Below are positions 1,454 to 57,636 of a stretch of DNA of 64,000 bases, piece after piece (position 1 is the first letter of the stretch; each line of letters starts with the position of its first letter). The position numbers and the translations under genes are program-made. The notes under the pieces are model-generated. The model saw nothing but the letters and a program-made list of their open reading frames with translations, was not told the origin of the DNA and did no database searches. This DNA is from an uncultured Algibacter sp. (GTDB lineage Bacteria > Bacteroidota > Bacteroidia > Flavobacteriales > Flavobacteriaceae): positions 744,001 to 808,000 of the forward strand of contig NZ_CANLGU010000001.1 in the NCBI RefSeq assembly GCF_947490405.1, read 5' to 3'.

Positions 1454-1467
1454 AATTTTTATTTGAA

Positions 1468-1535
1468 GCTAATCCCGCTATCCGCTGTATCTTTTTGCAA
1501 AAAAACAAAAAGGATGCCGCTACTATCGGGGCTAA
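1468..1535. repeat. Dispersed palindromic repeat, copy A
   Basis: Imperfect palindrome between sufD and sufS: GCTAATCCCGCTATCCGC on the left and GGATGCCGCTACTATCGGGG on the right, joined by a CTTTTTG/CAAAAAG stem. The GGATGCCGCTAC core matches, in reverse complement, the repeat at 11808-12003. The element has no in-frame stop in one frame, so it appears to extend sufS upstream to position 1495. That extension is repeat-derived and not likely to be translated. Confidence 0.6.
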
Positions 1536-1545
1536 ACTATCTGCC

Positions 1546-11669: not shown

Positions 11670-11807
11670 ATGATTTTCTTGTTAAGATAAGATATTTTAA
11701 AATGGTTTTATAACAAGGTGCCTTTAGACTTGTCTATTAATTTTTGTCTGGAATTTTATTGATTAACAAAAACTTTAGCCAACACATTACTTAGGCGGAT
11801 GAGACCC

Positions 11808-12003
11808 GCGTTAGGGATTGTAGCGGCATCCTTTTGTTTTTTATATAAAATAGACTGACGTTTATTGAAAGCTATGGATAGTCTAGTGGATTTTTGCCTT
11901 GGTAGAAATAATAGAAACAAAAGATATAGCGAAAAGCCCGACCGAAGCGATCCTACAAGGTTTTTTAACCTTGTAGGTATGAGCGCAGGGAACGCCCAAA
12001 TTT
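11808..12003 (+). repeat. Dispersed palindromic repeat, copy C (long form)
   Basis: Starts GCGTTAGGGATTGTAGCGGC and ends GGGAACGCCCAAATTT. An inner inverted pair ATCCTTTTGTTT / AAACAAAAGATAT matches copy A, and a strong hairpin at 11952-11977 (CCTACAAGGTT-TTTT-AACCTTGTAGG) lies within it. It fills most of the 342-base gap between the DUF5689 gene and the glycoside hydrolase gene; no other feature was seen there. Confidence 0.7.
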
Positions 12004-27951: not shown

Positions 27952-28005
27952 GGGTTAAGCACATTATAGTTCTGTTAGATTAACAAAAATTAACGCATTA
28001 TTAGT

Positions 28006-28097
28006 ATTTGGGCGTTACCACAAGGGTCGGGCTATTCGTTACAAGTCCTCGCACTTCCTTCGTCAGGCTGTGGGCTTTCCTCTGCTATCCCTAACGC
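28006..28097 (-). repeat. Dispersed palindromic repeat, copy D (inverted)
   Basis: ATTTGGGCGTTACC at the left, GGGTCGGGCT next, and ATCCCTAACGC at the right: the same outer blocks as copies B and C in the opposite orientation. It directly adjoins the hppD terminator, as copy B adjoins the DUF3078 terminator. Confidence 0.7.
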
Positions 28098-28132
28098 AGA
28101 AAACCTGCTGATTTAATATTAGCAGGTTTTCT
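28098..28132 (-). terminator. Intrinsic terminator after hppD
   Basis: AGAAAACCTGCT / AGCAGGTTTTCT perfect 12-base stem with an 11-base AT loop, 24 bases after the hppD stop on the minus strand. Confidence 0.85.
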
Positions 28133-29317: not shown

Positions 29318-29329
29318 TTCTTTAGTTTT

Positions 29330-29409
29330 GTCATTCCCGCAAAGGCGGGAATCTTATCGTTTGAAACTCAATTTTATATAATATGGATTCCTGCCTTCGC
29401 AGGAATGAC
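29330..29409. repeat. GTCATTCC inverted repeat pair between hppD and hmgA
   Basis: Two short hairpins, TTCCCGCAAAGGCGGGAA at 29334-29351 and ATTCCTGCCTTCGCAGGAAT at 29387-29406, flanked by GTCATTCC at the left and GGAATGAC at the right, so the whole 80-base element is an inverted repeat. This word occurs as a short dispersed element in many bacterial genomes. A half element is present at 30641-30664. Confidence 0.65.
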
Positions 29410-29412
29410 AAC

Positions 29413-39123: not shown

Positions 39124-42100
39124 TTAATGTTTTTGAATAAATAGCTTGGTATTTACATCGTCAAAAGCAATTTCTATACCATCTTCTAATTTATCTATAA
39201 TTTCAAGTTCATTTGTTAATGTTTCCGATTTGATATAAGCTCTATTCGCATCAACTGCATTTACAATCTGATCATCTTTTTGAAGAATAACATCAATTCT
39301 GTCTGTAACTTCAAAACCTGAATCTTTTCGTAAATTCTGGATTCTATTAATCAGTTCTCTTGCAATACCTTCTTTTCTTAAATCGTCAGTAATTGTTACA
39401 TCTAAAGCCACTGTTAAAGCACCTTCATTTGCAACTAACCACCCCTCAATATCTTGAGATGTAATTTCCACATCTGTAAGTTCTAAGGTAATAGTTTTTT
39501 CGTTTACTTCAACGTCTAAAATACCCTTTTGTTCGATATTTTTTATATCATCAGATGTAAAGTTATTAACTACCTGAGCTACAGCTTTCATGTCTTTCCC
39601 GAAACGGGGTCCTAACACTTTAAAATTAGGTTTAATTTGTTTTACAAGAATATCTGAAGCATCTTCTAAAACTTCAATTTCTTTTACATTTACCTCAGAT
39701 TTTATAAGGTCTGATACTGCTAAAATCTCATTTTTCTGGGATTCACTATTTATAGGAATCATTATTTTTTGCAGCGGTTGCCTTACTTTTATTTTCTCTT
39801 TTGCTCTTAACGATAAAACTAAAGAGGATATTGTTTGAGCACTTTCCATCTTGTTTTCCAAAGACTTATCAACATAAGTTTCATCAAAAACAGGGAAATT
39901 TGCCAAATGTACACTTTCAAATGCTTCTTTCTTGGTTGCTGCATTTAAGTCTAAATACAACCTATCCATAAAAAATGGTGCAATTGGTGCTCCCAATTTA
40001 GCAATAGTAACCATACAAGTATAAAGTGTTTGGTAAGCTGAAATTTTATCTTGTTGATAATCCCCTTTCCAGAAACGTCTTCTACTTAAACGTACAAACC
40101 AGTTACTAACATAATCTTGTGTGAAATCTGAGATTGCTCTTGCTGCTTTTGTAGGCTCGTAATCTGCATAAAACGCATCAACTTTTTGAATTAGTGTATG
40201 TAATTCTGAAAGTATCCATCTATCTATTTCGGGTCTTTCACTTAAAGGAATATCAGCTTCACTATAATTAAAGTTATCTAAATTCGCATATAGTTGAAAG
40301 AATGAATATGTATTATAAAGTGTTCCGAAAAACTTACGTTTTACTTCTTCAACACCATCCAAATCGAACTTTAAGTTATCCCAAGGGTTTGCGTTACTAA
40401 TCATGTACCAACGTGTGGCATCTGCACCATAATTTCCTAGAGTTTCAAACGGGTCCACAGCATTTCCTAAACGTTTGGACATTTTTTGCCCATTCTTATC
40501 TAATACTAATCCGTTTGACACCACGTTTTTATAAGCTACAGAATCAAAAACCATAGTTCCGATAGCATGAAGCGTATAGAACCACCCACGAGTTTGGTCG
40601 ACACCTTCAGCAATAAAATCTGCTGGATACGTTGTGCCTTTATCAATTAAATCTTTATTTTCAAACGGATAATGCCATTGAGCATAAGGCATAGAACCCG
40701 AATCGAACCAAACATCAATAAGATCGTTTTCGCGGAACATTTCTTGACCTGTTGGGGATACTAATACAATATCATCAACAATGTTTTTATGCAAATCGAT
40801 TTTAGCATAGTTTTCTTCGGAATTATTTCCCACTTCAAAATCAGCAAAAATATCTGCTTTTAAAACTCCAGCTGAAACAGCCTTAGCCATTTCAGATTTC
40901 AACTCTTCAACTGAACCGATACAGATTTCCTCTTTACCATCTTCAGTTCTCCATATTGGTAATGGAATTCCCCAATAACGAGAACGTGATAAATTCCAAT
41001 CATTAGCATTTGCTAACCAATTTCCAAAACGTCCAGTACCTGTTGATTTTGGTTTCCAGTTTATAGTTTCGTTAAGTTCAAACATTCTGTCCTTAACATC
41101 AGTAACTTTTACAAACCAAGAATCTAATGGGTAGTATAGAATAGGTTTATCTGTACGCCAGCAGTTTGGATAACTGTGTTTATACTTTTCAACCTTAAAG
41201 GCTTTATTTTCTTCTTTTAATTTTATGGCAAGTTCAACATCAATAGAACGTTCTGGTGCTTCACCATCTGTATAATATTCGTTTTTTACATATTTACCAG
41301 CAAACTCTGCCATTTCTGTCCTGAATTTCCCTTGTAAATCTACCAGAGGAACCAAATTATCGTTCTCATCTTTTACCAACATTGGAGGAACTTCAGGTGA
41401 TGCTTGTTTTGCAACTAATGCATCATCTGCTCCAAAAGTTGGTGCGGTATGTACTATTCCTGTTCCATCTTCAGTAGTAACGAAATCTCCAGAAATTACT
41501 CTAAAAGCATCTTGGGGATTATCGTTTGGCAAGGCGTATTTTAAAAGTTGCTCGTATCTAATTTCCAGTAAATCTTCACCTTTACATTCGGCAGCAATTA
41601 AAAAAGGGATTTTTTTGTTTTCTTTTGAATAGCTTGATAATTCTGAAACATCTTCTGTTTGCTGATACTTTCCTGTAAACTGTTTTCCAACTAGATTCTT
41701 AGCCAAAATAACGTGAATAGGCTCAAAAGTATATTGATTATACGTTGCCACTACAACATAATCAATCTTAGACCCAACAGTTAACGCCGTATTACTTGGT
41801 AAGGTCCAAGGTGTTGTAGTCCAAGCTAGAAGATGTAAATTATCGAATTTTTTTAAGAATTCTGGTAACGTGTTTTCAACTGCTTTAAACTGAGCAACTA
41901 CAGTAGTATCTGTTACATCTTGATAGGTTCCTGGTTGGTTTAACTCATGTGAACTTAAACCGGTACCTGCCTTTGGAGAATACGGTTGTATAGTATATCC
42001 CTTATATAACAAACTTTTATTATAAATCTGCTTTAATAACCACCAAACAGATTCCATATATTTAGGCTCATAAGTAATGTATGGATCATCCATATCTACC

Positions 42101-42522
42101 CAATAACCCATTTTCTGAGTTAGGTTATTCCAAACATCTGTATAACGCATTACTGCTTTTCTACAAGCTGCATTATAATCTTCAACAGATATAGTTTTTC
42201 CAATATCTTCTTTGGTAATTCCTAATTCTTTTTCAACACCCAATTCAATTGGAAGACCATGAGTATCCCATCCTGCTTTACGCTTTACTTGATAACCTTT
42301 CATGGTTTTATACCTTGGAAAAATATCTTTTATAGCGCGCGCCAATACGTGGTGTACACCAGGTAAACCATTTGCAGAAGGTGGCCCTTCAAAAAACACA
42401 TAAGATTCTGCACCTTCTCTGGTAGATACACTTTTCTCAAAGATGTTGTTTTCTTGCCAATATTGTAGTATGTTGTCTGCCACATTTGGTAAGTCAAGTC
42501 CTTTATATTCAGGAAATTTCAT
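39124..42522 (-). CDS. ileS: Isoleucyl-tRNA synthetase, type 2, with GVHH signature
   Basis: 1132-residue class I synthetase charging tRNA-Ile. Catalytic signature at residues 55-58 is GVHH (ANGLPGVHHVLARAIKD) instead of the canonical HxGH; the second signature is KMSKR (GQKMSKRLGNAVDPFE). The editing (CP1) domain spans about 200-420 with LLAWTTTPWTLPSNTALTVG; anticodon-binding and long C-terminal domains follow, as in type 2 (eukaryote-like) IleRS. The ATG start is confirmed by the conserved MKFPEYKGLDLPNVA. It has a 219-base leader with a hairpin. The first 23 codons recur at 49939-50007. Confidence 0.96.
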   Translation of the reverse strand: MKFPEYKGLDLPNVADNILQYWQENNIFEKSVSTREGAESYVFFEGPPSANGLPGVHHVLARAIKDIFPRYKTMKGYQVKRKAGWDTHGLPIELGVEKELGITKEDIGKTISVEDYNAACRKAVMRYTDVWNNLTQKMGYWVDMDDPYITYEPKYMESVWWLLKQIYNKSLLYKGYTIQPYSPKAGTGLSSHELNQPGTYQDVTDTTVVAQFKAVENTLPEFLKKFDNLHLLAWTTTPWTLPSNTALTVGSKIDYVVVATYNQYTFEPIHVILAKNLVGKQFTGKYQQTEDVSELSSYSKENKKIPFLIAAECKGEDLLEIRYEQLLKYALPNDNPQDAFRVISGDFVTTEDGTGIVHTAPTFGADDALVAKQASPEVPPMLVKDENDNLVPLVDLQGKFRTEMAEFAGKYVKNEYYTDGEAPERSIDVELAIKLKEENKAFKVEKYKHSYPNCWRTDKPILYYPLDSWFVKVTDVKDRMFELNETINWKPKSTGTGRFGNWLANANDWNLSRSRYWGIPLPIWRTEDGKEEICIGSVEELKSEMAKAVSAGVLKADIFADFEVGNNSEENYAKIDLHKNIVDDIVLVSPTGQEMFRENDLIDVWFDSGSMPYAQWHYPFENKDLIDKGTTYPADFIAEGVDQTRGWFYTLHAIGTMVFDSVAYKNVVSNGLVLDKNGQKMSKRLGNAVDPFETLGNYGADATRWYMISNANPWDNLKFDLDGVEEVKRKFFGTLYNTYSFFQLYANLDNFNYSEADIPLSERPEIDRWILSELHTLIQKVDAFYADYEPTKAARAISDFTQDYVSNWFVRLSRRRFWKGDYQQDKISAYQTLYTCMVTIAKLGAPIAPFFMDRLYLDLNAATKKEAFESVHLANFPVFDETYVDKSLENKMESAQTISSLVLSLRAKEKIKVRQPLQKIMIPINSESQKNEILAVSDLIKSEVNVKEIEVLEDASDILVKQIKPNFKVLGPRFGKDMKAVAQVVNNFTSDDIKNIEQKGILDVEVNEKTITLELTDVEITSQDIEGWLVANEGALTVALDVTITDDLRKEGIARELINRIQNLRKDSGFEVTDRIDVILQKDDQIVNAVDANRAYIKSETLTNELEIIDKLEDGIEIAFDDVNTKLFIQKH
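42349..42360 (-). other. ileS: Swapped IleRS signature motif (GVHH)
   Basis: Codons GGT GTA CAC CAC encode residues 55-58. In HxGH synthetases the order is His-x-Gly-His; here Gly and His are exchanged. Type 2 IleRS enzymes with GxHH are known to be extremely resistant to mupirocin. Confidence 0.85.
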
Positions 42523-42558
42523 CTGATAATTTTTATTTTATTATAATAAGACAGATGT

Positions 42559-42610
42559 AAACTTTGGTGACAAATCGGTGCTAAACACAATCTTCTCTAA
42601 ACCAAAGTTT
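42559..42610 (-). promoter_or_regulatory. Hairpin in the ileS leader
   Basis: AAACTTTGGT at 42559-42568 and ACCAAAGTTT at 42601-42610 are 10-base perfect arms around a 32-base loop, 37 bases before the ileS ATG. It could affect ileS translation. It is duplicated exactly at 50044-50095. No T-box specifier or antiterminator pattern was recognised. Confidence 0.5.
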
Positions 42611-42686
42611 TAGCGCTCATTTACTCTTATTTCTTATAAGTTCGCGAATTTAATGAATTATCCTTAAAACATTAATTTTAAAACCA

Positions 42687-42719
42687 AAAAAAAGACTACT
42701 TAAAATCAGTAGTCTTTTT
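42687..42719 (-). terminator. Intrinsic terminator after the 2201-residue T9SS gene
   Basis: AAAAGACTACT / AGTAGTCTTTT perfect stem with A and T runs on either side, 23 bases after the stop on the minus strand. Identical copy at 50172-50204. Confidence 0.9.
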
Positions 42720-42741
42720 CTAATTTTATTCTTTCTTATTA

Positions 42742-45700
42742 TTATTTCACGATAATCTTTTTAGTTAACACCGCATTGGTTTCTGTTCGCATAGAAACTA
42801 TGTAAGCACCTGTAGATATATTGTTGAACTGTATTCCATTTTCTAACTCTTCTCTTGACACATCTGTTAATTCCTTAACTGCCTGACCTCTCATATTCAC
42901 TAAAGAAAACTTGATTACATCACTATTGAGTTTCTTTACATAAAACGTATTGTTCGTGTTCTTGAAATACATGAAGTTTTCTTTTGCTGTTGCAATATCT
43001 GTACTTAATGTTTGCGCTTCACTCTGGAAAACAATCTCAAACCTTCCATTGAATATTCCTTGTTCTGCTGTAAAACTATAAGCCAAATCCTGAGTTAAAT
43101 CAAAATAGGTTTGTGTAAGATTGTCTCGTAGGTAAATCTCCTGATCTGATTCTACGTTCTCCATATCTGTAATTCTTATTTCAAAACTATTATCACCTGA
43201 TGATCTGAAGTTTAATGGTATAACTTTATCTGATGTAATAACTGAATAAGCCTGCATGTTCATATTCTGCCCTTCCAAATCTAAATTCAAATCATTATTA
43301 CTAGTCTCTGTGTTTTTAGCATCATATCCATAATCAAAGGCATCGGTTGTATAATCACTAAAACCTAATAACAACTCTCTTGTAGTCTCTGGTCCTGTAA
43401 CTGAATTTAGCTCCAAACGTATCTTTTGCATACTATCTGAACCCGATTCCTTTCCTGATTTTGAATTTGATGTTTTTGTTTTTTCTTTTGTTGACTTTGA
43501 AAAAGTTGATCCATTACCATAAGTCCCATCTGCGTCTGATTCCTTGATGAATATACGCTGGCTGTTATTAAACTCTACTTGTCCATCTGCGATAATCTCT
43601 GCAATAAATCCTTGACCTACTGGCATGTATCTTGTTGGAACAATAGTACCGTCTTGATTACCATTGTGAGCCCCATAAAAACTCACAAATTGATACGCTC
43701 GTGTGGATCCTAGTTTATTTACTTGGGCATAACCGCCTTCGTACTCGCTAAGATTATGTGAATCGCCACCCCATTGTTGCCATAACTGTAAAGTACCATC
43801 TATAACACCTACATTGTCATCTATAAACTTATGAATATCTATAGCAGAGGCATAAGGGTTACCTAGTAAGTATTCTGTTTTTGTGTGGTTGGCCACTGAA
43901 CCTGGACCGCCTACATCTTCTACATCTACTAGAATAGTACCGTTGTTGGGCTTGCCCTCAAATATGTATTGCTGTTCGGTACCTCCTGAACCTGTTCCTT
44001 TTTGGGTATAGCCTACGCCTGGGCTTAATGGTGTACTTGGGGATACCCATGCCCAATCCCAATATGTTTTTCCATTGACAAACTTATACAACCAATAAGT
44101 ACTAATGCTACCGCTACCTGTATAATTTGAGGTGAACATACAGGTTGAGCCTGAACCATCCTTGAGCATATCTAAGCTAAAGGCCGAATTGTTAGCGTTA
44201 TTGGTTGCCGCATTGTTATCTGTTAAACTCGTTGCGCCAGTGCTTCCAACAGGTGATGACCAATAATTATAACGGTATGGACTCGATGTTCCTTCCTGAC
44301 GCCTTAGTATCTTGCCATCGGCTGATGTTACCAAATCACTCGTCTCGGTCTGGACTAATTGACAATCATCCTCCAAATCTAAGGTACCATTTAACTCCAA
44401 GTACCAATTATTAGTTACTGCCTTTTCGCTGTGAATCCGCAAGTTAGTGCCAGAATCTATTATTAAACCAGATGTTGATATATCGTGACTAGCTGTCACT
44501 TCATTAGATATATGCACTATACTCCAATCTTTATTATTGGCCGTATCCTCAATATCCCACACATCGCCATGTAACCATGTCCCTGTACTTGTCCATGCCC
44601 CATCACTTGAAGTCTCATAAGGCATTGGCGCCGTTTGCTCTTGTGCTGTTTGTATGTTTCTTAGAGATAGTGTTTTGTTATTTCCTGAGATGTCATCCGT
44701 TGTGTTATTCTTTATATCAGTCATCGGATAGTAGGCTATTAAACTACTCCAAGATACTTTTGATCCTGTACTACGTTCTTCTATATCTTTTGGAATGACA
44801 CTTCCTCGAACATTACCGCCATTGTTCTCTATTTGCTGATAGACCATCTGTTGTACCTGGTCTTCGGTTAGGGAGACATCAAATACTCGAACCTCGTCTA
44901 TGTTACCACTAAAATACTGAATCGTTGGTGTAATATCTCTTGATAAACGACCTACTTCAAAATTCCCATTCCATAAACTCGCATCGGCTTCTATAGTTTG
45001 ACCAGAAAGTGACCCATCAGTAACTGTGGATATCATCTTTCCATCCACATATATAGATTGGGTTCCTGTGGCGCTTGAATATGTACCTGCTACATGATGC
45101 CACTCATCATCAATAATACTTATACCATTTATTACGTTTGTAGTTCCTGATGTTGTTCTAATACCAAATGCAAGTGTATTTCCATGCTTACGATATAATC
45201 GGCATGAAACATCCTCTCCAACTATAGTTCTATCTGTTACACCTGACAATGAGCTCAATTTTACCCAAGCCATTATAGTAACTTCACCTAACCCTTGCAA
45301 TAAAGCTTCACCTTGTAAATAATCATCTACACCATCAAAATCTATGGTTGCTGAAGTTGGTGGATTAATATCAAATAAATCTCGGTAATCTAAATCGCCT
45401 CCTAATGTTAAATCAAAATCAGCATCAGGCAAAATTGATAAATCTGTAGGGTCTTCTATATCTTCATTAACATCCAAAGTAGCATCGTTTATCCCTGTAG
45501 TTTCAAAGGCATCATCTAACCCATCATTATCGGTATCTGTACCCAAGATAACATTTGGCATACCGTTTTCTTCGATATCTGGCGTACCATCATTATCTGA
45601 ATCTAAATCTAAATAATCTGGCGTACCATCTCCATCAGTATCTTCTAATGATAATAATCCAACTCCATAATTATCATCTATACCGTCGTTGTTAACATCT

Positions 45701-48700
45701 GTAATTCCTGGACCATTACCACTTGGTGCTATGTAACCAATTGTAGGTTGTGCTTCTACATTATCTGGTATCCCATCGTCATCAGAATCAATATCTAAAT
45801 GGTCTGATATTCCATCTGAATCAGAATCACAAAATTGATACACAGCTGTTAACGTAATTTCAGCAAAGTCTACAAATAAATAATCATCTGCATAATCATC
45901 TCCAATTATTATATTCCATGTTCCCACATTTGGAGCTTCGTGGTATAAAGATGTTAGACTATTTTTTGGCAAAAACGTACCAGATTGTGGTAGGTTGTAT
46001 GTTGGATCTGCATCACTGGCAATTACTGCACCTGTACTATTAAATACTTGATCTACATCAATAAAAGATACCCCAGAACCAGCTCCAGAGCCATAATCTC
46101 CATAGTCGACGAAGTTAATAACTGCTCCGCTGGGTGATTTTAATCCAAAATATTTTTCGTCTGCATAAATAAGACCAGGTGAACCACTGCATTTATCTCC
46201 TGGTGTTCCAGAAAATATACCATCAAATATTTCAAATTTAATTCTTATTGATATATCAGTTACTCTATAACCTGCTGGTACAGAAAAACTTCCTATAACA
46301 AATTCTTCTTCATTTATTAACTTAGAACATGAAAGTCCATCAACAAAAATAGGACTAGCAATATCTCCACCAATTGTTTCAGTATACATAATTCCTGGAC
46401 ACTCATCAGTATCTAAAATTCCATCGTTATCATCATCTAAATCAACTATATCTGAAAGACCATCTGCATCTGAATCATTGTAAACTGTTACAGTAGCTAT
46501 AGCTGAAGAACAGTTAGTGGCGTTTGCTACTTCGCAAATTTGATAAGTTACAGGGTAAGTTCCTACTGTTGTTCCTACTGGAACCATTATATTTCCGGAT
46601 GTATCAATAGAAACTCCTGTCAATCCACCATCTGCTATAATAGATATAGTAACATCAGAATCTACTACAGGGGTTCCGTTCAATATATCATTTACAGTAG
46701 CATCTCCCGCAATTCCACCAGAAATATTTGTGACTGATGTATTATAAAAGGTGTCATCTACTGCCAGAATATTAATTGCATTTATAGTAATATTCCTTGA
46801 AGCTTTACATTGATTAGTTAAATAGTCTAATGCTATTACACTAAAATTATAAGTTCCTATTGAGGTTATTGGTTCAAGTGTTAAAGTAATAGAACCACCA
46901 TCTCCAAAAACACTATCACTGATATCCATTTCTGAAGCATTTTCAATAAAATACAAGGTGTTTTCTGCAGAATTTGAGATAATTATACTTTGTGGTTGAT
47001 TAGTAAAAACAGTGTAACTAGTTTTATCTGTATTAGGCGCACTAGGTCCAAAACAAGGAATAGAATAAGTAGAAGGACAAATAATTTCAGCTGTATTGGG
47101 TTCTTTAATTCCAATACTTAAAACACCTCCTTCATAAATTTGGTTTGCTAATGTAGTGTTTACTGGAACAGACCAAGTTGTTCCAGAAGTAGTCACTTCA
47201 CCCAAATAATATCCATCTATATATAATGAAACTATCGTATTTGCAATTGCACTTGCTAAAGTCCCATTAACAGCTGTTGTATTTATATTGGTTATAGGGC
47301 TTATGGTTCCGCAACGCAGATTAGAAACGGGTGCAAGTGCTGTAACTAAATTAGAATTCCCACTAGTACCACAAGCTGTAGTTAAAGTAGCATAGTAAAC
47401 TATTCCTGCAACAGGAGCTGGTGAAGACAAAGTCCAATTTCCTCCTGCACCTACCGTGGTAGTTCCTAATAATACATTAGTCGCATTATCATAAACATTA
47501 ATTGTTCCTCCTTCAACAGAAGCACTTCCTTGTAGTGGGCTTCCTGCAACTACATTACCATTATCATTATATATATATGGTGATAGCACATCACAAATCA
47601 CAGTTCTTTGAACAGGAATTGAACATTTATCTTGAGTGGAATCATTTGTGCTTGATAAAACTGCTCTAACTTCCACCACATCCCCTACTTGTAAAAATGA
47701 ATTGGTAGTGTCATAAGAATATGTTCCTACTGCTGTTGCTGTTGTAATACCCAAATTTATTGGAACAGCTGAGCCATTTTTATACACTACTAAAATTACA
47801 CTAGAATTTGCAGGTGCAGCACCAGTTATCTCAGAAGTATTTGGTGATATGGGATTAGTTTCTATTGTTGCTACTGGTGTATCTGGTTCAGGAGTATTAT
47901 TTACATAAGTACAAAATTCATAACATCTAGATTCACATTTTCCAGGTTCTTGATAGGTTATAAAATAGCTTCCAGCTGGTATATCACCTCCAGAAGGACC
48001 AGAACAGGTGTTACCAGTATTATAAGCGCTTCCATCCCAACCCCATTCTGTAACTGATGTAGCAAATGTATGCTCAAATTCAAGAACGATGCCTCCAGAA
48101 CCACTATATCTATAAACTCTTGTTGTAACACCAGCAGGAATAACAGTTCCTGTAATAGCATTATTAGTTCCTATTTTAATTCCTTTATGTGTTGTACAAA
48201 TATCGTAAATATCAAAACAGCTAGAAGTTTGATTGCATGCAACATCGGTAGATACTTGTACATTATTGCTATCATAACAAGCAGCTTCTCCAGTACTTAC
48301 AGCAGATGCATAAATAACATCACCGCTTGCAAGTGCGCTAACAGATAAATTCCAGCTTCCTCCAGATGTTGCTGTAGTTGTTCCAATAAGAGTTCCGTTT
48401 TTGTATACGGTAATCGTTGCTATACTTTGTGTAGAATAACTTGCGCTTGTCCAGCTTCCAGAAATGGTTGTTGCTCCTGCCGTAATAGGAGAATTTACTG
48501 TTGGTGCGTTAGTACAAAGTCCTGTAGGACAGGTTCCATCTAGTATTTGCTGAGGTGTACAAGGCGGTGTAACTATTAGATTTCCTGAAGGATACTTATC
48601 CGAAGAAGGCCCACATAATGACGGTTTAGGAGCCATCACAGTAGCTATATCATATCGTAAAGGCGTACTGCTTGTTAAAGGCGTGCTTCCACCTGAAAAG

Positions 48701-49347
48701 GCGGATAATGGCACATAAAAATCAATAAAATAATCGCTATCACCATCATTATTAGTTAATGCCACTGAGGTTTGAACATGCTGTGGATTAGTTAATAAGG
48801 TTCTTTCCCATAGAAGATTACAGCTATTTCCATTATTAACGTCATAAATAGAAATAGTGAATCCTGTTTGCACAACAACTTCATATTCAAATCCTGGATT
48901 GGATGTAGTATATGTGGGATCAGAAACCCCAAACTTACTATCTGTATCTATTAAAACACTATAACCTTTAGCTCCCGCAACAATATTACCCAAACGAAAT
49001 CTTGTTAGTAAATTAGTACCATCAAAATATTGATAAAATGCATGTCCATTTTCATCTTGAACAAAGTCGCTAAACCCACCACTAGGTCCCATTGAAATGT
49101 CTCCTGAAGATTCTTCAGAAATAACTGGAACAGAATAATATGGGATCTCACTTGCTAATCCTATATCTGTAGTTGTAAACCCAGTATTGGTTGCAGAGAC
49201 ATATCCATCACCATTAGGGTCTAAAACAGAAGATAAACTTTGAGGAGGAATATTTCCTGCCCCATCTCTTACAATTAAACCTGGTGTTTGTGAAAACACA
49301 AAAAACGGTAAAATTAAAAATACAACATAAAGTAATTTTATTTTCAT
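42742..49347 (-). CDS. Giant T9SS-secreted adhesin-like protein (2201 residues)
   Basis: Signal peptide to about 19 (FFVFSQ). Residues 20-260 form a beta-rich domain of unknown family; about 270-800 hold Ig/cadherin-like repeats ([29 protein letters not shown]); 960-985 and 1165-1290 are thrombospondin type 3 Ca-binding repeats ([19 protein letters not shown]); 1330-1500 is a LamG/concanavalin-like domain ([21 protein letters not shown]); the last 80 residues are a type A T9SS sorting domain ([14 protein letters not shown] ... [10 protein letters not shown]). Probably surface-anchored adhesin or glycan binder. Its last 519 residues are nearly identical to the paralog at 50228. Terminator at 42687; upstream block shared with the paralog. 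Confidence 0.9.
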
Positions 49348-49574
49348 GATTAATTGATTTAGGTAACCTTATATTAAAGATATGATTCGAAAACTTTTAC
49401 CTGTTAAATATTTGAATAAATACAAAGTCATCATTCATTGATGTATAAACTCATTATAAATTTAGACTCATTTAACACAGATAAGTCACTCTACAATAAG
49501 ATATGACATGATATTGTACAAAGCATTCAATTCTAAAATGATTTTGAAATTAAACTTGAGGGAAGAATATTTCG

Positions 49575-49602
49575 TTTATTAGAATTTTAAAATTCTAATA
49601 AA
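49575..49602. promoter_or_regulatory. 28-base perfect palindrome
   Basis: TTTATTAGAATTTT followed by its exact complement, 228 bases upstream of the 2201-residue gene. It lies between TTGAGGGA (about 49556-49563) and the conserved block, the same place where the paralog has GGATTA-N6-TAATCC (55459-55476). It could be an operator or cruciform site. Confidence 0.5.
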
Positions 49603-49609
49603 AATAACA

Positions 49610-49682
49610 TACAATAATACATCAAAAAATCGACAAAAGTTAAAAAAAATCGGATTAAAATACTTTTTTTAGCGACAAAATG
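49610..49682 (-). promoter_or_regulatory. Conserved upstream block, gene 1
   Basis: 73 bases aligned without gaps at the ends to 55498-55570, roughly 80 percent identical by eye. Key words are CAAAAAATCGACAAAA and CGACAAA at the far end, i.e. two TTTTGTCG words in direct orientation on the coding strand. Likely a regulatory region duplicated with the gene. Confidence 0.55.
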
Positions 49683-49896
49683 CATATCATCGAAAAAACA
49701 ATAAAGATCCTATAAGAACAGTTTTGTTACTCAAAACCTTCGTTTAAATAAAAATTAAATCAAAAAGTCTATAAAATTTTCAATTTTAGAAATTCATTGA
49801 GTTTTAAGTGAAATCTATTGTTTATGCTAACAGAAAATGTAAACCTGAAGGGAAGAAATATTTATACAGTTAAATAGTTAATTATGTCAAAATAAT

Positions 49897-50007
49897 CTAA
49901 CTATAATAAATACATAAATTAGCTAAAATATTATATTTTTGCCAATATTGTAGTATGTTGTCTGCCACATTTGGTAAGTCAAGTCCTTTATATTCAGGAA
50001 ATTTCAT
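49897..50007 (-). pseudogene. Truncated ileS copy (first 23 codons)
   Basis: 49939-50007 equals ileS codons 1-23 exactly. From 49938 the frame runs into unrelated sequence for 13 more codons and stops at 49897-49899, so a 36-residue chimeric peptide could be made if the duplicated leader is transcribed. No synthetase activity is possible. Confidence 0.85.
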
Positions 50008-50043
50008 CTGATAATTTTTATTTTATTATAATAAGACAGATGT

Positions 50044-50095
50044 AAACTTTGGTGACAAATCGGTGCTAAACACAATCTTCTCTAAACCAAAGTTT
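50044..50095 (-). promoter_or_regulatory. Duplicated ileS leader hairpin
   Basis: Exact copy of 42559-42610 at a constant offset of 7485, now in front of the truncated ileS remnant. Confidence 0.5.
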
Positions 50096-50171
50096 TAGCG
50101 CTCATTTACTCTTATTTCTTATAAGTTCGCGAATTTAATGAATTATCCTTAAAACATTAATTTTAAAACCA

Positions 50172-50204
50172 AAAAAAAGACTACTTAAAATCAGTAGTCT
50201 TTTT
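50172..50204 (-). terminator. Intrinsic terminator after the 1697-residue T9SS gene
   Basis: Same hairpin as 42687-42719 (AAAAGACTACT / AGTAGTCTTTT), 24 bases after the stop on the minus strand. Confidence 0.9.
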
Positions 50205-50227
50205 CTAATTTTATTCTTTCTTATTAT

Positions 50228-53200
50228 TTATTTCACGATAATCTTTTTAGTTAACACCTCATTGGTTTCTGTTCGCATAGAAACTATGTAAGCTCCTGTA
50301 GATATATTGTTGAACTGTATTCCATTTTCTAACTCTTCTCTTGACACATCTGTTAATTCCTTAACTGCCTGACCTCTCATATTCACTAAAGAAAATTTGA
50401 TTACATCACTATTGAGTTTCTTTACATAAAACGTATTGTTCGTGTTCTTGAAATACATGAAGTTTTCTTTTGCTGTTGCAATATCTGTACTTAATGTTTG
50501 CGCTTCACTCTGGAAAACAATCTCAAACCTTCCATTGAATATTCCTTGTTCTGCTGTAAAACTATAAGCCAAATCCTGAGTTAAATCAAAATAGGTTTGT
50601 GTAAGATTGTCTCGTAGGTAAATCTCCTGATCTGATTCTACGTTCTCCATATCTGTAATTCTTATTTCAAAACTATTATCACCTGATGATCTGAAGTTTA
50701 ATGGTATAACTTTATCTGATGTAATAACTGAATAAGCCTGCATGTTCATGTTCTGCCCTTCCAAATCTAAATTCAAATCATTATTACTAGTCTCTGTGTT
50801 TTTAGCATCATATCCATAATCAAATCCATCGGTTGTATAATCACTAAAACCTAATAACAACTCTCTTGTGGTCTGGGGTCCTGTAACTGAATTTAGCTCC
50901 AAACGTATCTTTTGCATACTATCTGAACCCGATTCCTTTCCTGATTTTGAATTTGATGTTTTTGTTTTTTCTTTTGTTGACTTTGAAAAAGTTGATCCAT
51001 TACCATAAGTCCCATCTGCATCTGATTCCTTGATGAATATACGCTGGCTGTTATTAAACTCTACTTGTCCATCTGCGATAATCTCTGCAATAAATCCTTG
51101 ACCTACTGGCATGTATCTTGTTGGAACAATAGTACCGTCTTGATTACCATTGTGAGCCCCATAAAAACTCACAAATTGATACGCTCGTGTGGATCCTAGT
51201 TTATTTACTTGGGCATAACCGCCTTCGTACTCACTAAGGTTATGTGAATTACCGCCCCATTGTTGCCATAACTGTAAAGTACCATCTATAACTCCTACAT
51301 TGTCATCTATAAACTTGTGAATATCTATAGCAGAGGCATAAGGATTACCTAGTAAGTATTCTGTTTTTGTGTGGTTAGCCACTGAACCTGGACCGCCTAC
51401 ATCTTCTACATCTACTAGAATAGTACCGTTGTTGGGCTTGCCCTCAAATATGTATTGCTGTTCGGTGCCTCCTGAACCTGTTCCTTTTTGGGTATAGCCT
51501 ACGCCTGGGCTTAATGGCGTACTTGGGGATACCCATGCCCAATCCCAATATGTTTTTCCATTGACAAACTTATACAACCAATAAGTACTAATGCTACCGC
51601 TACCTGTATAATTTGAGGTAAACATACAGGTTGAGCCTGAACCATCCTTGAGCATATCTAAGCTAAAGGCCGAATTGTTAGCGTTATTGGTTGCCGCATT
51701 GTTATCTGTTAAACTCGTTGCGCCAGTGCTTCCAACAGGTGATGACCAATAATTATAACGGTATGGACTCGATGTCCCTTCCTGACGTCTTAATATTTTT
51801 CCGTCTCCAGAGGTTACTAAATCACTTGTCTCTGTTTGGATTAATTGACAATCATCCTCTAAATCTAATGTGCCATTTAACTCCAAGTACCAATCGTTAT
51901 TCACTACAGTGTCACTGTGAATTCGCAAACTAGTGCCAGAATCTATAATCAAACCTGACGTACCTATTGAATGGCAAGCACTTATATCATTAGATATTTT
52001 TATGATGCTCCATGCTTTATTATTTGATGTATTTTCAATATCCCAAACATCGCCATGTAACCAAGTACTTTCGCTTGTCCAGTTACCATTATTTGAGGTA
52101 ACATATGGCATTGGCGCCGTTTGATCTTGAATCGTACTAATATAATTTATATACAACCAATTATCATGACCAGAATAATCTGATGTTCTTCCTACAACAA
52201 TATCAGTCATAGGGTAATATGCTAATAAATTCGACCAGTTTACTGTTGAATGAGTTGAAAAATCTTTTATATCTTTTGGAATAACTTTCCCTCGTAGAGT
52301 TCCACCATTATTCTCAATCTCCTGATAAACCATCTGCTGTACCTGACCTTCGGTTAGGGAAACATCAAATACTCTAACCTCGTCTATGTTACCGCTAAAA
52401 TATTGAATCGTTGGAGTAACATCTCTTGATAAGCGACCTACTTCAAAATTCCCATTCCACAAACTCGCATCGGCTTCTATAGTTTGACCTATTAATGATG
52501 GGTCTGTTAATGTAGCTTTTAACTCACCATCTACATAAATATTTTGGGTTCCTGTTGCACTAGAAAAAGTTCCAGCTACGTGATGCCACTCTTCATCAAT
52601 AATGCTTATACCATTTAGTACACTTGTAGCTCCGGATGTTGTTCTGACACCAAATGCAAGTATATTTCCATGCTTACGATATAATCGGCATGAAACATCC
52701 TCACCAACTATAGTTCTATCGGTTATACCTGATAATGAGCTCAATTTTACCCAAGCCATTATACTAACTTCGCTTAACCCTTGTAGTAAAGGTGTACCAC
52801 TCAAGTAATCATCTATACCATCAAAATCTATGGCTGCATAAGTTGGTGGATTAATATCAAATAAATCTCGGTAATCTAAATCGCCTCCTAATGTTAAATC
52901 AAAATCAGCATCAGGCAAAATTGATAAATCTGTAGGGTCTTCTATATCTTCATTAACATCTAAAACAGGATCATTAACATTTGTTGTTTCAAAAACATCA
53001 TTTAATCCATCATTATCTGTATCAATACCTGCTGTAGTGTTTGCCATTCCGTTTTCTTCAATATCTGGTATTCCGTCGTTATCAGAATCGCTATCAAACA
53101 TATCGATTAAACTATCACCATCAGTATCAACAGGCGTAATTCCAGTACCATAATTAGTATAAATCCCTGTTACAGGATCAATACTACCTATAGGCAATAA

Positions 53201-55321
53201 ATATCCTAGAGTAGTTTGTGCCTCTACATTATCTGGTATTCCATCGTTATCACTATCAATATCTAATGAATTTAAGTCTCCATCTCTGTCGCTGTCACAA
53301 ACAGAATCAACGCCTAACTGTGTTAGTCGTAAAGCTGTGCTTGCAATAGATCCTGTGGTGCCAAAAATTAAATCGATATGAGAAAAGATATCAAATTCTA
53401 AATATAGCCAATGTGCGGTATCGCTATTAAATGAACCTCCTTCATCTGTCCAATTAGTTGTATCTCCAGCCAAAGTTGGGTCTAGTCTGTATAGTGTATA
53501 TCCTGCAGGATCTGGGCCATTTACAAATCCTCCTTGTTGTAATTCAGTTGTTGATGCAAGGTATGGTATTATTGTGCCTGTAGCCGTTGAAGGATTAAAA
53601 CCATTTATCTCAGTGTAATCAGAACCTGAATCACTATCGTTATCTCTAAGCTGTAATATTAAATCGTATAGTACAGCAACCTCTCCTACAGGATTGGAGG
53701 GAGTTGCTGTTCCAGAATATACCAAATCTAGAGAATAGCTTACATAAGTATCGTTAACAGGATTTGTAACAGACATATTCAAATTCCCATTACATTGTAC
53801 TTGAAATACACCATTAATACTTTGAATAGTGAGTACAATATCATAATATGTCCCTTGATAAAACAAAGCGTTTGAATACAAAACTTTTTCTCCAACAAGA
53901 ACATCGTTTAAATTTGTAGCTGTTAATAATGAAGGTGTATTAAAATTAATAGCAGCTGAACACTCATAGGTATCAATAATGCCATCATTATCATCATCTT
54001 CGTCACAAATATCTGAAATACCATCTCCATCAAAATCAGGATTACCAGAAGCCACAGCATCACAAGGATATGTTACTGTTAATGTTGCAGACCTTACTTC
54101 TCTGAAACACAATAATTCGTCGTAAGTTATAACAACAAAATACTCATTACCATCTAATCCAGTAACATCACTAATATTTAATCGATCACTGTTTATACCA
54201 TTGTAAAGACCAGAAAGTGATAACGCTACACCTCCAGCATCAGGATCTCCCAAATACCATTGATAATTTGAATTAAAGGAGGAAAAAAATGAAGAAAATC
54301 CACTATAAATTGGGTTGCCAGTACCATCAAAATTTTGTGTTTGATATGCCTCTACACCCACTCTAAAGCTTACACCTTCTCCTTCATCTGCAGATTGATT
54401 TATAGGATCAACCACATCAATTCTAGTAGCCTCAACTTCATTAGCAGTGACTCCATTATATCCACCACTACTTCCAGTTACTCGACCATTAACATCAAAG
54501 CCTGTACCGTCTAATATCCCATCTCCATTCACATCAACACCACCAGATTCAATTACATCATTACAACCATCATTATCACTATCTAGATCTAAGTAGTTTG
54601 GTATACCATCTCGATCCGTGTCAATATCGCATATTGTTTCATCAAATGTAATACCTATAGTATCAAGGTCAACTTGTATAACGCCAGCATCATAAAAAAC
54701 AAACCTTATATAATATATGGTATTTTGATTTAGGGTGTAACCATCTAAAACATTGAAATCATTGTATCTGTAAGATGTTGTATCTGTATCCGGAGTAGTG
54801 CCATCATCTAAAACTGTGTAAGTTGCAAAAGTTGCATCAGTTGAAATTATTACACCCATTTTTAAAGTAGATGGTTCAAATCTGTCTATTACTTTTTTAT
54901 CTAAGTGTAAAGTAGCATCTAAAGTTCCTAATTGAAATTCCAAGTAGTCATTAGCAGATAGCGCTGTAGCAAACGTAGTTTCATCAGCTCCAGTAAACCT
55001 ATAATCAAAAGCCCATGACGTATCAACAAGCCCAGATCCAAAATTGGTTGTAGTATATGGAGTTGTATTCGCAGAGTCATATAAGGATGTTGAAAGTAAA
55101 TGATAATCTCTACCATAATTCCAAGCCAAACGATAATTTTCGTCATCCCTCAGGTAAAAACTACATCCTGCGCCTTCTTCAGTATCTAAAATACCATCAT
55201 TATCATCATCAAGGTCTGTAGCGTCAACTATTAAATCTCCATCAGAATCTTGAGCATTTATCGAGTAAGTAAACAAACATAGACTAACAATAAACACTTT
55301 TAAAAGTGGTTTCGTTTTCAT
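50228..55321 (-). CDS. Giant T9SS-secreted adhesin-like protein (1697 residues)
   Basis: From ATG 55321: signal peptide [20 protein letters not shown] to INAQ. Thrombospondin type 3 repeats at about 25-50, 225-250, 430-455, 675-700 and 740-800 ([19 protein letters not shown] and similar) alternate with beta-sandwich domains; LamG-like domain 824-985; a region common to both paralogs follows, and the last 80 residues are the type A T9SS sorting domain. Residues 1179-1697 differ from the 2201-residue paralog at four positions I can count, while the N-terminal third is unrelated. An in-frame ATG 24 bases upstream was not used because the signal peptide begins at MKTK. A -7 box lies at 55348-55355. 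Confidence 0.9.
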
Positions 55322-55347
55322 AATTAACATTGTAGATTTGGGCAAAT

Positions 55348-55604: not shown

Positions 55605-56276
55605 TCATTCTTTTTCAATTTCACCACAAAAATCATTATAATAGTAGACAATTTCAGGAATAGTAGTTCTATTAAAATTACCCGAATCTGATTTATTTTT
55701 TATACCATCACAATCGTGAAAATATTTCTTAAGCTTTTTTTTGAAATTAGAAAAGATAGCTTCAAAATTTAAACCAGTAGTTAAGCTTAAAACTTTGTCG
55801 GCTCCTTTTCGCTTTAAATAATAAAATGTTTCTTCTACTTTATGATTATTTATTGGAAACCCTGTTTTGGAATTTAAACCTGAAGTTACCCAATAGCTTT
55901 CAATTTTGATATAAAGATTAACAGCTCCTTCCTCTACTAACTGTAATAATTGTGGATATGATTTTTTACTAAACTTAACATATAAGAAAGTAACATCATC
56001 AAATTCATAATGGAAAGTAACCCCTTTTATCATCAAATCAGTCCAAACGTCTGCTTTTCCTTCTTTCGATGCTTTAAACTTAACTTTATACTTTTCACTT
56101 GATATTGCTACAAAACCAACAAGTTTACCATACCCTTTAATTGAGGTACCGTCTAGAAAATGAATAGTTGCCTTTTCATAACCATCAAAAAACTCAACCT
56201 TTTTACTACAAGGAATTGCATTACCTAAATTGAATGCTAAAGTATACAAGAATAGTATTAAAATTTGTTTTTTCAC
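55605..56276 (-). CDS. Exported protein of unknown function
   Basis: 223 residues; signal peptide to about 20 (LGNAIPCS). The mature part is beta-rich (ATIHFLDGTSIKGYGKLVGF ... VTFHYEFDDVTFLYVKF) with a helical C-terminus (FEAIFSNFKKKLKKYFHDCD). No family recognised. The start is GTG 56276, one base after the radA stop, so it is probably translated from the radA transcript. Confidence 0.7.
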   Translation of the reverse strand: MKKQILILFLYTLAFNLGNAIPCSKKVEFFDGYEKATIHFLDGTSIKGYGKLVGFVAISSEKYKVKFKASKEGKADVWTDLMIKGVTFHYEFDDVTFLYVKFSKKSYPQLLQLVEEGAVNLYIKIESYWVTSGLNSKTGFPINNHKVEETFYYLKRKGADKVLSLTTGLNFEAIFSNFKKKLKKYFHDCDGIKNKSDSGNFNRTTIPEIVYYYNDFCGEIEKE

Positions 56277-56277
56277 G

Positions 56278-57636
56278 CTAAACGATAAGGTCTACTAAAT
56301 CCTCAATTTTAGAAATTAATTGAACTTTAATAACTGTATTTTTAAGTGATATTTTATTATATTTAGATACAAAAATAGTTGAAAATCCTAGTTTTTCAGC
56401 TTCTAAAATACGTTGCTCAACACGTTGCACAGGTCTAATCTCACCAGAAAGTCCAACCTCAGCAGCAAAACAAAAATCACGCTGTAATGCTTCATCTTCA
56501 TTAGAAGATAAAATAGCAGCTATAACTGCCAAGTCTATAGCAGGATCGTCAACAGTTATGCCTCCTGTTATATTTAGAAACACATCTTTTGCTCCTAGAC
56601 GGAAACCAGCACGTTTTTCTAAAACAGCCAGTAGCATATTTAAACGTTTTGCATTAAATCCAGTAGCGCTTCGTTGAGGAGTACCATAAACCGCTGTACT
56701 TACCAAAGCCTGCACCTCAATCATTAAAGGGCGCATACCCTCTAAAGTTGCTGCAATGGCATTTCCTGAAAGTTCTTCATCTTTTTTAGAAATTAAAATT
56801 TCTGATGGGTTAGACACTTCTCGGAGTCCAGAACCTTGCATTTCGTATATTCCTAATTCGTTTGTAGAGCCAAAACGGTTTTTATGAGCTCTTAAAATTC
56901 TGAATACATGATTCCTATCCCCTTCAAACTGTAAAACAGTATCTACCATGTGTTCTAAAATTTTTGGACCAGCAATGTTACCATCTTTTGTAATATGTCC
57001 AATTAAAAGTACAGGTGTTGCTGTTTCTTTAGCAAACTTTATAAGCTCTGTTGTACATTCTTTTATCTGTGAAATGCTTCCAGATGAAGATTCAATATAA
57101 TCGCTGTGCAAAGTCTGTATGGAGTCAATAATTACAATGTCTGGTTCTAAAGACTCAATCTGTTTAAAGATATTTTGGGTTTTAGTTTCAGTTAAAATAT
57201 AGCAGTTACTATTTTCTGGATTAATACGTTCTGCTCGCATTTTTATTTGCTTTTGACTTTCTTCACCAGAAACATAGAGTGTTTTGTATGGCAACTTTAA
57301 TGAAATTTGAAGTAGCAATGTGCTTTTACCAATTCCTGGCTCCCCTCCCAATAGAGTTAATGATCCTGGTACAATACCACCTCCTAAAACACGATTAAGC
57401 TCCGTATCAAAGGTGTTTAACCTAGGTTCTTTTGAAGTATCAATATCATTAATTTGTAAAGGAATTGATGCTTTTTTTGTTTTAGATGTTGAAGTTTTCC
57501 AGTCGTTCTTTTCTGGCTTCTGGATAAGCTCTTCAACTATAGTATTCCATTCTTTACAGGCATTACATTGACCTTGCCATTTAGCATATTGCGTGCCACA
57601 GTTTTGACAAAAAAAAGTAGTTTTTACTTTAGCCAT
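56278..57636 (-). CDS. radA: DNA repair protein RadA
   Basis: 452 residues; RecA-like ATPase that promotes branch migration in recombination. Order: zinc finger C10-x2-C13 and C24-x2-C27 (FCQNCGTQYAKWQGQCNAC), ATPase with Walker A GGEPGIGKSTLL and Walker B IVIIDSIQTL, the RadA motif KNRFG (HKNRFGSTNELG), and the C-terminal Lon-like domain (NITGGITVDDPAIDLAVIAA). The ATG overlaps the stop of the esterase-like gene by one base (TAATG). Confidence 0.96.
   Translation of the reverse strand: MAKVKTTFFCQNCGTQYAKWQGQCNACKEWNTIVEELIQKPEKNDWKTSTSKTKKASIPLQINDIDTSKEPRLNTFDTELNRVLGGGIVPGSLTLLGGEPGIGKSTLLLQISLKLPYKTLYVSGEESQKQIKMRAERINPENSNCYILTETKTQNIFKQIESLEPDIVIIDSIQTLHSDYIESSSGSISQIKECTTELIKFAKETATPVLLIGHITKDGNIAGPKILEHMVDTVLQFEGDRNHVFRILRAHKNRFGSTNELGIYEMQGSGLREVSNPSEILISKKDEELSGNAIAATLEGMRPLMIEVQALVSTAVYGTPQRSATGFNAKRLNMLLAVLEKRAGFRLGAKDVFLNITGGITVDDPAIDLAVIAAILSSNEDEALQRDFCFAAEVGLSGEIRPVQRVEQRILEAEKLGFSTIFVSKYNKISLKNTVIKVQLISKIEDLVDLIV

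What the first reader, a model, noticed from the sequence alone, without database searches (positions are those of the whole stretch)
42454..51786. 1.85-kb near-identical duplication that copied the 3' part of a T9SS gene together with the start of ileS
42454-44300 and 49939-51786 match over about 1.85 kb. Outside the T9SS gene the two differ by one inserted base in 288; inside it, four amino-acid changes in 519 residues. At the right end similarity falls sharply to that of an older paralog pair, and at the left end the match stops inside ileS codon 23. So recent copying or gene conversion seems to have been laid over an older tandem duplication. Homogenised surface-protein ends may allow recombination between the paralogs.
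Basis: seen in the sequence. Interest (0 to 1): 0.72.

Follow-up and report, generated by a model that had tools for sequence, protein, structure and literature searches.

The report
Swappable surface-protein genes beside ileS
Two neighbouring genes for large, probably secreted surface proteins share a nearly identical back half, apparently because one has been copied onto the other, while the front half of one of them has passed almost unchanged to a different species, so the locus looks like a natural swapping station for surface proteins.

Summary
42454-44301 and 49939-51787 differ by 23 substitutions and one 1-base indel; no substitution lies in the 288 bp outside the gene. dS jumps from 0.06 to about 1.8 at 44302. 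An artefact is very unlikely: another species' assembly carries the same ileS-fragment junction.

The tract is part of a wider system. In Flavobacteriaceae, tandem T9SS surface-protein genes lie between radA and ileS (both neighbours seen in 45 of 68 loci), with a constant 3' half and variable 5' ends. In 6 of 25 multi-copy genomes two 3' halves share a block of at least 90% identity; among copies of 700 nt or more no between-genome block does. One block, in H. ulvae, is internal, as gene conversion gives.

The 5' ends travel. Gene A's start is identical in another Algibacter species (dS 0.000 over 880 codons; radA 1.36, ileS 0.86), while gene A's 3' part differs. The ileS fragment fits the window's lineage; beside it lies a radA-like remnant. 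I propose intragenomic conversion plus interspecies recombination through the 3' halves; the scar marks one additive integration (inferred).

The parts
42454..44301 (-). Copy 1 of the near-identical tract: 3' 519 codons of gene A, intergenic DNA, first 23 codons of ileS
49939..51787 (-). Copy 2: 3' 519 codons of gene B, intergenic DNA, 23-codon ileS fragment
42454..43263 (-). Inner, apparently younger part of the tract (3 substitutions in 810 sites)
42742..49347 (-). Gene A, 2201 aa T9SS surface protein; N-terminal module about aa 1-1250, LamG, constant core, sorting domain
50228..55330 (-). Gene B, 1700 aa T9SS surface protein (ATG start; the mechanical ORF from TTG gives 1705 aa)
44851..45336 (-). 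LamG (PF13385) domain of gene A, near the switch point between travelling N-terminal module and resident C-terminal half
52337..52813 (-). LamG (PF13385) domain of gene B
42745..42960 (-). T9SS type A sorting domain of gene A (TIGR04183)
50231..50446 (-). T9SS type A sorting domain of gene B (TIGR04183)
49939..50007 (-). ileS fragment (69 nt, identical to the start of the window's ileS)
49755..49839 (-). Remnant similar to the 3' end of radA (with a 15-nt gap relative to the copy in L092)
49332..49714 (-). Spacer reaching into the start of gene A, similar (64%) to the DNA between radA and the T9SS gene in A. marinivivus (G007)
46552..50258 (-). Block that differs from another Algibacter species (L092) by only 2 substitutions, the extra base at the end of gene B and one 15-nt indel
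42687..42721 (-). Intrinsic-terminator-like hairpin after gene A
50172..50206 (-). Copy of the same hairpin after gene B
39124..42522 (-). ileS (TIGR00392), intact; downstream border of the locus
56278..57636 (-). radA (TIGR00416); upstream border of the locus

Best explanation
The interval between radA and ileS is a recombination locus for T9SS surface proteins. Each gene has a variable N-terminal module that can cross species borders and a resident C-terminal half (LamG, core, sorting domain). Step 1 (shown as pattern): the 3' halves of neighbouring genes are made alike by recombination inside one genome (gene conversion); in the window this probably happened at least twice, most recently over 42454-43263. 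Step 2 (shown as pattern): N-terminal modules with upstream DNA pass between species and genera and end up fused to a different 3' half, with the switch near the LamG domain. Step 3 (inferred): the shared 3' half is the homology arm for this exchange. Step 4 (inferred, about 0.5): gene A's cassette was first added in the window's lineage by one homologous crossover in the 3' half and one illegitimate joint at ileS codon 23, leaving the ileS fragment next to a radA-like remnant; later homogenisation ran to the end of that homology, codon 23. Step 5 (inferred): the benefit is rapid change of exposed proteins, for instance against phage or for attachment.
For: Tract and dS break; two-layer tract. 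Same-genome blocks of 90% or more over at least 300 nt in 6 of 25 multi-copy genomes (5 of 25 at 95% or more), and in no between-genome comparison among 68 genomes when copies under 700 nt are left out. H. flava 1635 bp at 100% and H. aquatilis 3098 bp at 99.2%, both ending 7 bp before the end of the stop codon; H. ulvae 1093 bp at 97.8%, internal with divergence on both sides. Cross-species modules: window vs G008 dS 0.000 (880 codons) against radA 1.36 and ileS 0.86; window vs H. ulvae N-term dS 0.31 against ileS 1.55, C-term 61% aa; A. marinivivus vs H. flava N-term dS 0.20 against ileS 1.16, C-term 63% aa; gene B vs G004 dS 0.14 against ileS 0.63. The ileS fragment in G008 carries a 5' insertion that, of six species compared, only the window and G004 have, and bases of the window's ileS that G004 and G008 lack. 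Gene A's module: 2 of 10 genus genomes (own and G008). Synteny in 45 of 68 loci. The radA-like and ileS-like pieces beat all 200 shuffles in 2 of 25 spacers, those of the window and G008.
Against: Most N-terminal pairs do not outpace the backbone: only 16 of 214 gene pairs have N-terminal identity above IleS identity, and 12 of the 16 involve one genome (L154) whose IleS is itself divergent. 19 of 25 multi-copy genomes show no 90% block. One between-genome block above 90% does exist below the length limit: the 486-nt piece of the G008 contig (97%), which belongs to the transferred block. Past codon 880 the window and G008 are mosaic (dS 0.12 for codons 880-1250), so the right border is not one clean crossover. 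Similarity of ileS beyond codon 23 is marginal (4 of 1000 shuffles at 60 nt, 34 of 1000 at 250 nt), so an older, longer ileS copy is neither proved nor excluded. ileS/radA remnants were significant in only 2 of 25 spacers tested, and these two are one shared block, so the additive mechanism is not shown to be general. The G008 evidence rests on a 6.4-kb contig that ends inside both genes. No function was tested.
Confidence: 0.75

Rival explanations
1. A single recent partial duplication copied the 1.85 kb, with ends set by chance, and nothing else happens at the locus.
For: The left end has no clear homology beyond codon 23; 0 substitutions in 288 bp of intergenic DNA and ileS start.
Against: Substitutions are unevenly spread; homogenised 3' halves occur in other genera, one of them internal; the cassette next to the joint moved between species.
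Confidence: 0.1
2. One additive integration (homologous crossover at 44301, illegitimate joint at ileS codon 23) made the whole pattern at once, without later gene conversion.
For: Explains both ends of the tract and the ileS/radA joint in one event.
Against: Uneven divergence inside the tract (Fisher p = 1.9e-6 with non-coding sites, but only 0.044 with synonymous sites alone).
Confidence: 0.2
3. Assembly or contamination artefact: the copies in the window or the block in G008 are chimeric contigs.
For: Contigs of 5 of 9 other genus members end inside the 3' halves, so this DNA is hard to assemble.
Against: The two copies differ at 23 sites and lie within a 926-kb contig; the G008 contig matches the window only in its middle and departs at both ends; H. 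flava, H. aquatilis and H. ulvae show the same kind of tract within single contigs.
Confidence: 0.04
4. Purifying selection, not recombination, keeps the 3' halves alike.
For: The 3' half is conserved across the family (mean column identity 68% in 34 sequences).
Against: Synonymous and intergenic sites are nearly identical too, and between-genome copies are far more divergent than these same-genome copies.
Confidence: 0.01

Closest known systems
Gingipain/HagA adhesin modules of Porphyromonas gingivalis (PMC5266723; passages, and section 20)
   Same: T9SS-exported surface proteins, identical repeats between genes that defeat automatic assembly, modular recombination and exchange between strains.
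   Different: There the variable parts are adhesin domains that lie C-terminal to the catalytic domain, and strains of one species were compared; here tandem genes at one locus have a homogenised 3' half and N-terminal modules cross species and genera.
Rhs / polymorphic toxin C-terminal displacement (recalled; named in passages of PMC5361080, and in the listing)
   Same: A constant half as likely homology arm, a swapped variable half, horizontal spread.
   Different: Mirror image: here the constant half is at the 3' end and the variable half at the 5' end; no toxin or immunity gene identified.
Additive insertion by homology-facilitated illegitimate recombination in Vibrio T6SS arrays (PMC5361080, passages)
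   Same: One homologous anchor and one illegitimate end; a new module added while part of the old content stays behind.
   Different: Here the leftover is an ileS start next to a radA-like end; the mechanism is only inferred, as it is in that paper.
Replacement flexible genomic islands (PMC4033161; abstract and outline)
   Same: Genes for exposed structures replaced by homologous recombination at a fixed place.
   Different: Here the proposed recombining arm lies inside the coding sequence and intragenomic homogenisation is added.

Membership tests
T9SS type A cargo proteins | C-terminal type A sorting domain | tested here: met
   TIGR04183 25.3 and 28.8 bits, cut-off 23; PF18962 25.4 and 26.2, just below cut-off 27
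T9SS type A cargo proteins | Export and surface attachment | not testable with these tools
   needs experiment
Gene conversion tract | Sharp fall of synonymous divergence at the edge | tested here: met
   dS 0.06 vs 1.8 at 44302
Gene conversion tract | Tract bounded on both sides by divergent homologous DNA | tested here: inconclusive
   In the window the left edge coincides with the end of clear homology; met in H. ulvae
Rhs-like polymorphic toxin locus | Variable C-terminal part | tested here: not met
   The constant end is C-terminal, the variable end N-terminal
Rhs-like polymorphic toxin locus | Toxin domain with immunity gene | tested here: inconclusive
   Pfam gives gene A's N-terminal part only weak matches, the best to bacterial Ig, and gene B's a weak TSP3 match; toxin libraries were not searched
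Replacement flexible genomic island | Different gene content at a fixed place in relatives | tested here: met
   radA-ileS interval in 45 of 68 loci; gene number and N-terminal parts vary
Replacement flexible genomic island | Recent exchange between lineages | tested here: met
   dS 0.000 over 880 codons against 0.86 and 1.36 in the flanking genes
Homology-facilitated illegitimate recombination product | One homologous and one non-homologous junction flanking foreign DNA | tested here: inconclusive
   The joint at ileS codon 23 fits, but weak similarity beyond it and later conversion blur it

The most novel reading that the evidence does not exclude
The radA-ileS interval of Flavobacteriaceae is a dedicated surface-protein exchange locus, a mirror image of Rhs: intragenomic conversion keeps a resident 3' half uniform so that it serves as landing pad for N-terminal modules arriving from other species and genera.
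Probability: 0.45. Interest if true: 0.7.

Novelty: new variant of a known kind. Interest (0 to 1): 0.55.

Why it matters
It would give marine flavobacteria a simple route to change exposed T9SS proteins by recombination without a dedicated recombinase, and a fixed locus where this can be measured in populations. The pattern predicts where breaks should fall (the LamG edge and the constant half) and is directly testable in cultured Algibacter and Hyunsoonleella.

Tried and rejected
Assembly artefact and purifying selection: rejected for the reasons given with the rivals. I therefore tested 25 spacers (chosen by me from 16 genomes, not all that I had) against 200 shuffles each: the window and G008 beat all shuffles for both radA and ileS; in the other 23 at least 19 (radA) and 17 (ileS) of 200 shuffles did as well. 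Origin of the 5' insertion in ileS: no copy outside the two at this locus. Control pair of adjacent T9SS genes elsewhere in the genome: 47% aa, not homogenised; one pair only. Spread of gene A's module in the family: of 397 genomes drawn evenly, only the own genome and one 34% relative; G008 is not among the listed ones, and the draw is a sample. Grouping of N-terminal parts by single linkage merged 77 of 97 genes and was not used. Structure prediction of the constant half was asked for twice and not run because the machine was busy. Promoter scan: no excess over shuffles (37 found, 36 expected), and it covers sigma-70 types only. Papers: searches; I saw the listings and opened three papers (PMC5266723, PMC5361080, PMC4033161). 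None of the listed titles or abstract starts describes this locus; long lists were cut (12 of 57 shown, 8 of 170) and the library holds open-licence papers only.

Corrections made on the way: one search counted 5 of 24 homogenised genomes because it dropped the identical H. flava pair; one search gives 6 of 25. A third-copy comparison was misaligned by 3 bases for G008 and is not used for G008. The 68 named loci are its best 80 matches merged, so they favour close relatives.
Full report
Observation. The repeat is real. 42454-44301 and 49939-51787 align with 23 substitutions and one 1-base indel. The 288 bp outside the gene hold no substitution; the 519 shared codons hold 4 amino-acid and 19 synonymous changes, dS 0.060. 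Beyond 44301 dS is 1.77 (44302-44450) and 1.95 (44450-44700). The own genome has no third copy, only two matches of about 30 nt. The left edge is the end of ileS codon 23. The bordering genes are ileS (TIGR00392) and radA (TIGR00416).

The tract has layers. 42454-43263 has 3 substitutions in 810 sites, 43264-44301 has 20 in 1038 (change point 43264, permutation p = 0.022). Synonymous plus ileS-fragment and intergenic sites give Fisher p = 1.9e-6, synonymous sites alone 0.044, all sites 0.0024. A single event is therefore unlikely, though the synonymous-only test is weak.

The genes. A (2201 aa) and B (1700 aa) end in a type A sorting domain (TIGR04183 above cut-off) and carry LamG (PF13385). 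Gene A's N-terminal part has bacterial-Ig matches below Pfam's cut-off. Of 6 genes of other species that I scanned, 6 have LamG and 5 match the Pfam tail domain at E 0.01 or better.

The locus. In relatives the gene or genes lie between radA and ileS. Of 68 named loci, 54 show radA upstream, 51 ileS downstream, 45 both, none in another order; 8 show neither, among them short contigs, internal copies and one (L211, Lacinutrix) that shows neither within its 10-kb flanks. Named genera include Algibacter, Flavivirga, Hyunsoonleella, Tamlana, Mariniflexile, Winogradskyella and Psychroserpens. Two relatives, G026 and G023, have no such gene between radA and ileS.

Homogenisation recurs. Among 25 genomes with two or more copies of 700 nt or longer, 6 have a same-genome block of at least 90% over at least 300 nt: the window, H. 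flava, H. aquatilis, H. ulvae, T. sargassicola and F. multivorans; 5 of 25 reach 95%. No between-genome block of copies this long reaches 90% among 68 genomes; the shorter G008 piece does (97% over 486 nt). H. flava: 1635 bp at 100%. H. aquatilis: 3098 bp at 99.2%. H. ulvae: 1093 bp at 97.8%, lying inside a longer alignment of 77.6% overall, so the copied piece has two internal edges, as gene conversion gives. In 5 of 9 other genus members contigs end inside the 3' half, as repeats would cause.

Modules cross species. A contig of G008 (L092) holds the end of a T9SS gene, the intergenic DNA, the ileS fragment, the spacer and gene A's start. From 50258 to 46552 it differs from the window by 2 substitutions, the extra base near the end of gene B and one 15-nt indel. 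Over 880 codons dS is 0.000, while radA gives 1.36 and the start of ileS 0.86; codons 880-1250 give 0.12, and from codon 1300 the proteins are 54% identical. In a neighbouring 20-kb stretch the pieces longer than 1 kb match at 74-85%. At both ends the contig departs from the window, so it is not simple contamination. H. ulvae carries gene A's N-terminal 1250 residues at 91% (dS 0.31, ileS 1.55) with a 61% C-terminal part; A. marinivivus and H. flava share a 440-residue N-terminal module (dS 0.20, ileS 1.16) with 63% C-terminal parts; gene B and its G004 counterpart have dS 0.14 against 0.63 for ileS. In the two cross-genus pairs identity falls near the start of LamG. Against this, only 16 of 214 comparable pairs have N-terminal identity above IleS identity, and 12 of the 16 involve one genome with a divergent IleS. 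So recent transfers are clear but few in this sample, which mostly has one genome per species.

Direction. Of six species compared, the window and G004 have an insertion of about 90 nt at the start of ileS; the ileS fragment in G008 has it, although G008's own ileS has not, and it also has bases of the window's ileS that G004 and G008 lack. The fragment therefore most likely arose in the window's lineage and was later passed to G008, directly or through a relative. The 15-nt gap lies in the window's radA remnant, which suggests a later deletion there.

The scar. About 100 bp beyond the ileS fragment lies a stretch similar to the last 100 bp of radA (79% over 99 nt in L092, E = 2e-17; 76% in a global alignment), followed by DNA similar to the radA-T9SS spacer of A. 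marinivivus (64%, E = 2e-24). So the joint connects the two outer borders of the interval, as if a second interval content had been added head to tail. The remnant is about as similar to radA as radA 3' ends of different genomes are to each other (median 75% of 1891 pairs, some genomes counted twice), so it may be foreign or decayed. Of 25 spacers tested, only those of the window and G008 beat 200 shuffles. Whether ileS similarity continues past codon 23 is unclear.

Reading. The pattern is best explained by intragenomic gene conversion of 3' halves plus exchange of N-terminal modules between species by homologous recombination, with one additive, partly illegitimate integration in this lineage. 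The first two are shown as patterns, the third is inferred, and the biological benefit is a guess. Related ideas exist for P. gingivalis gingipains (PMC5266723, passages and one section), Vibrio T6SS arrays (PMC5361080, passages) and replacement islands (PMC4033161, abstract and outline). None of the listings names this locus; apart from those three papers I opened none.

Noticed in passing
window 28005-28100: Dispersed repeat of about 93 nt (GGGCGTTACC...TAACGC) with many copies in G004, G007 and G008; no Rfam match at gathering score.
   Followed up: partly
window 29325-29411: Second, smaller dispersed repeat, matching in both orientations in relatives.
   Followed up: no
window 1467-1537 (-) and 11798-11947 (+): Two Flavo-1 RNA matches (RF01705).
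   Followed up: no
window 42517-42608: Insertion of about 90 nt after codon 4 of ileS (counted in relatives) in the window and G004 gives ileS a new start and leaves a short upstream reading frame; outside the two copies at this locus, no further copy in the genome.
   Followed up: partly
window 55605-56276 (-): 223-aa ORF between radA and gene B without Pfam or NCBIfam match at E 0.001.
   Followed up: no
window 45085-45444: Second stretch of low dS (0.19-0.28) between genes A and B, possibly an older conversion tract in LamG.
   Followed up: no
L075:1339-2214 (-) and L177:12983-13855 (+): Small genes of about 290 aa next to ileS that carry only the end of the constant half after what looks like their own signal peptide.
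   Followed up: no
L154:15980-19459: IleS of Flaviramulus multivorans is only about 75% identical to that of the others while its RadA is 93%: possibly a replaced ileS.
   Followed up: no
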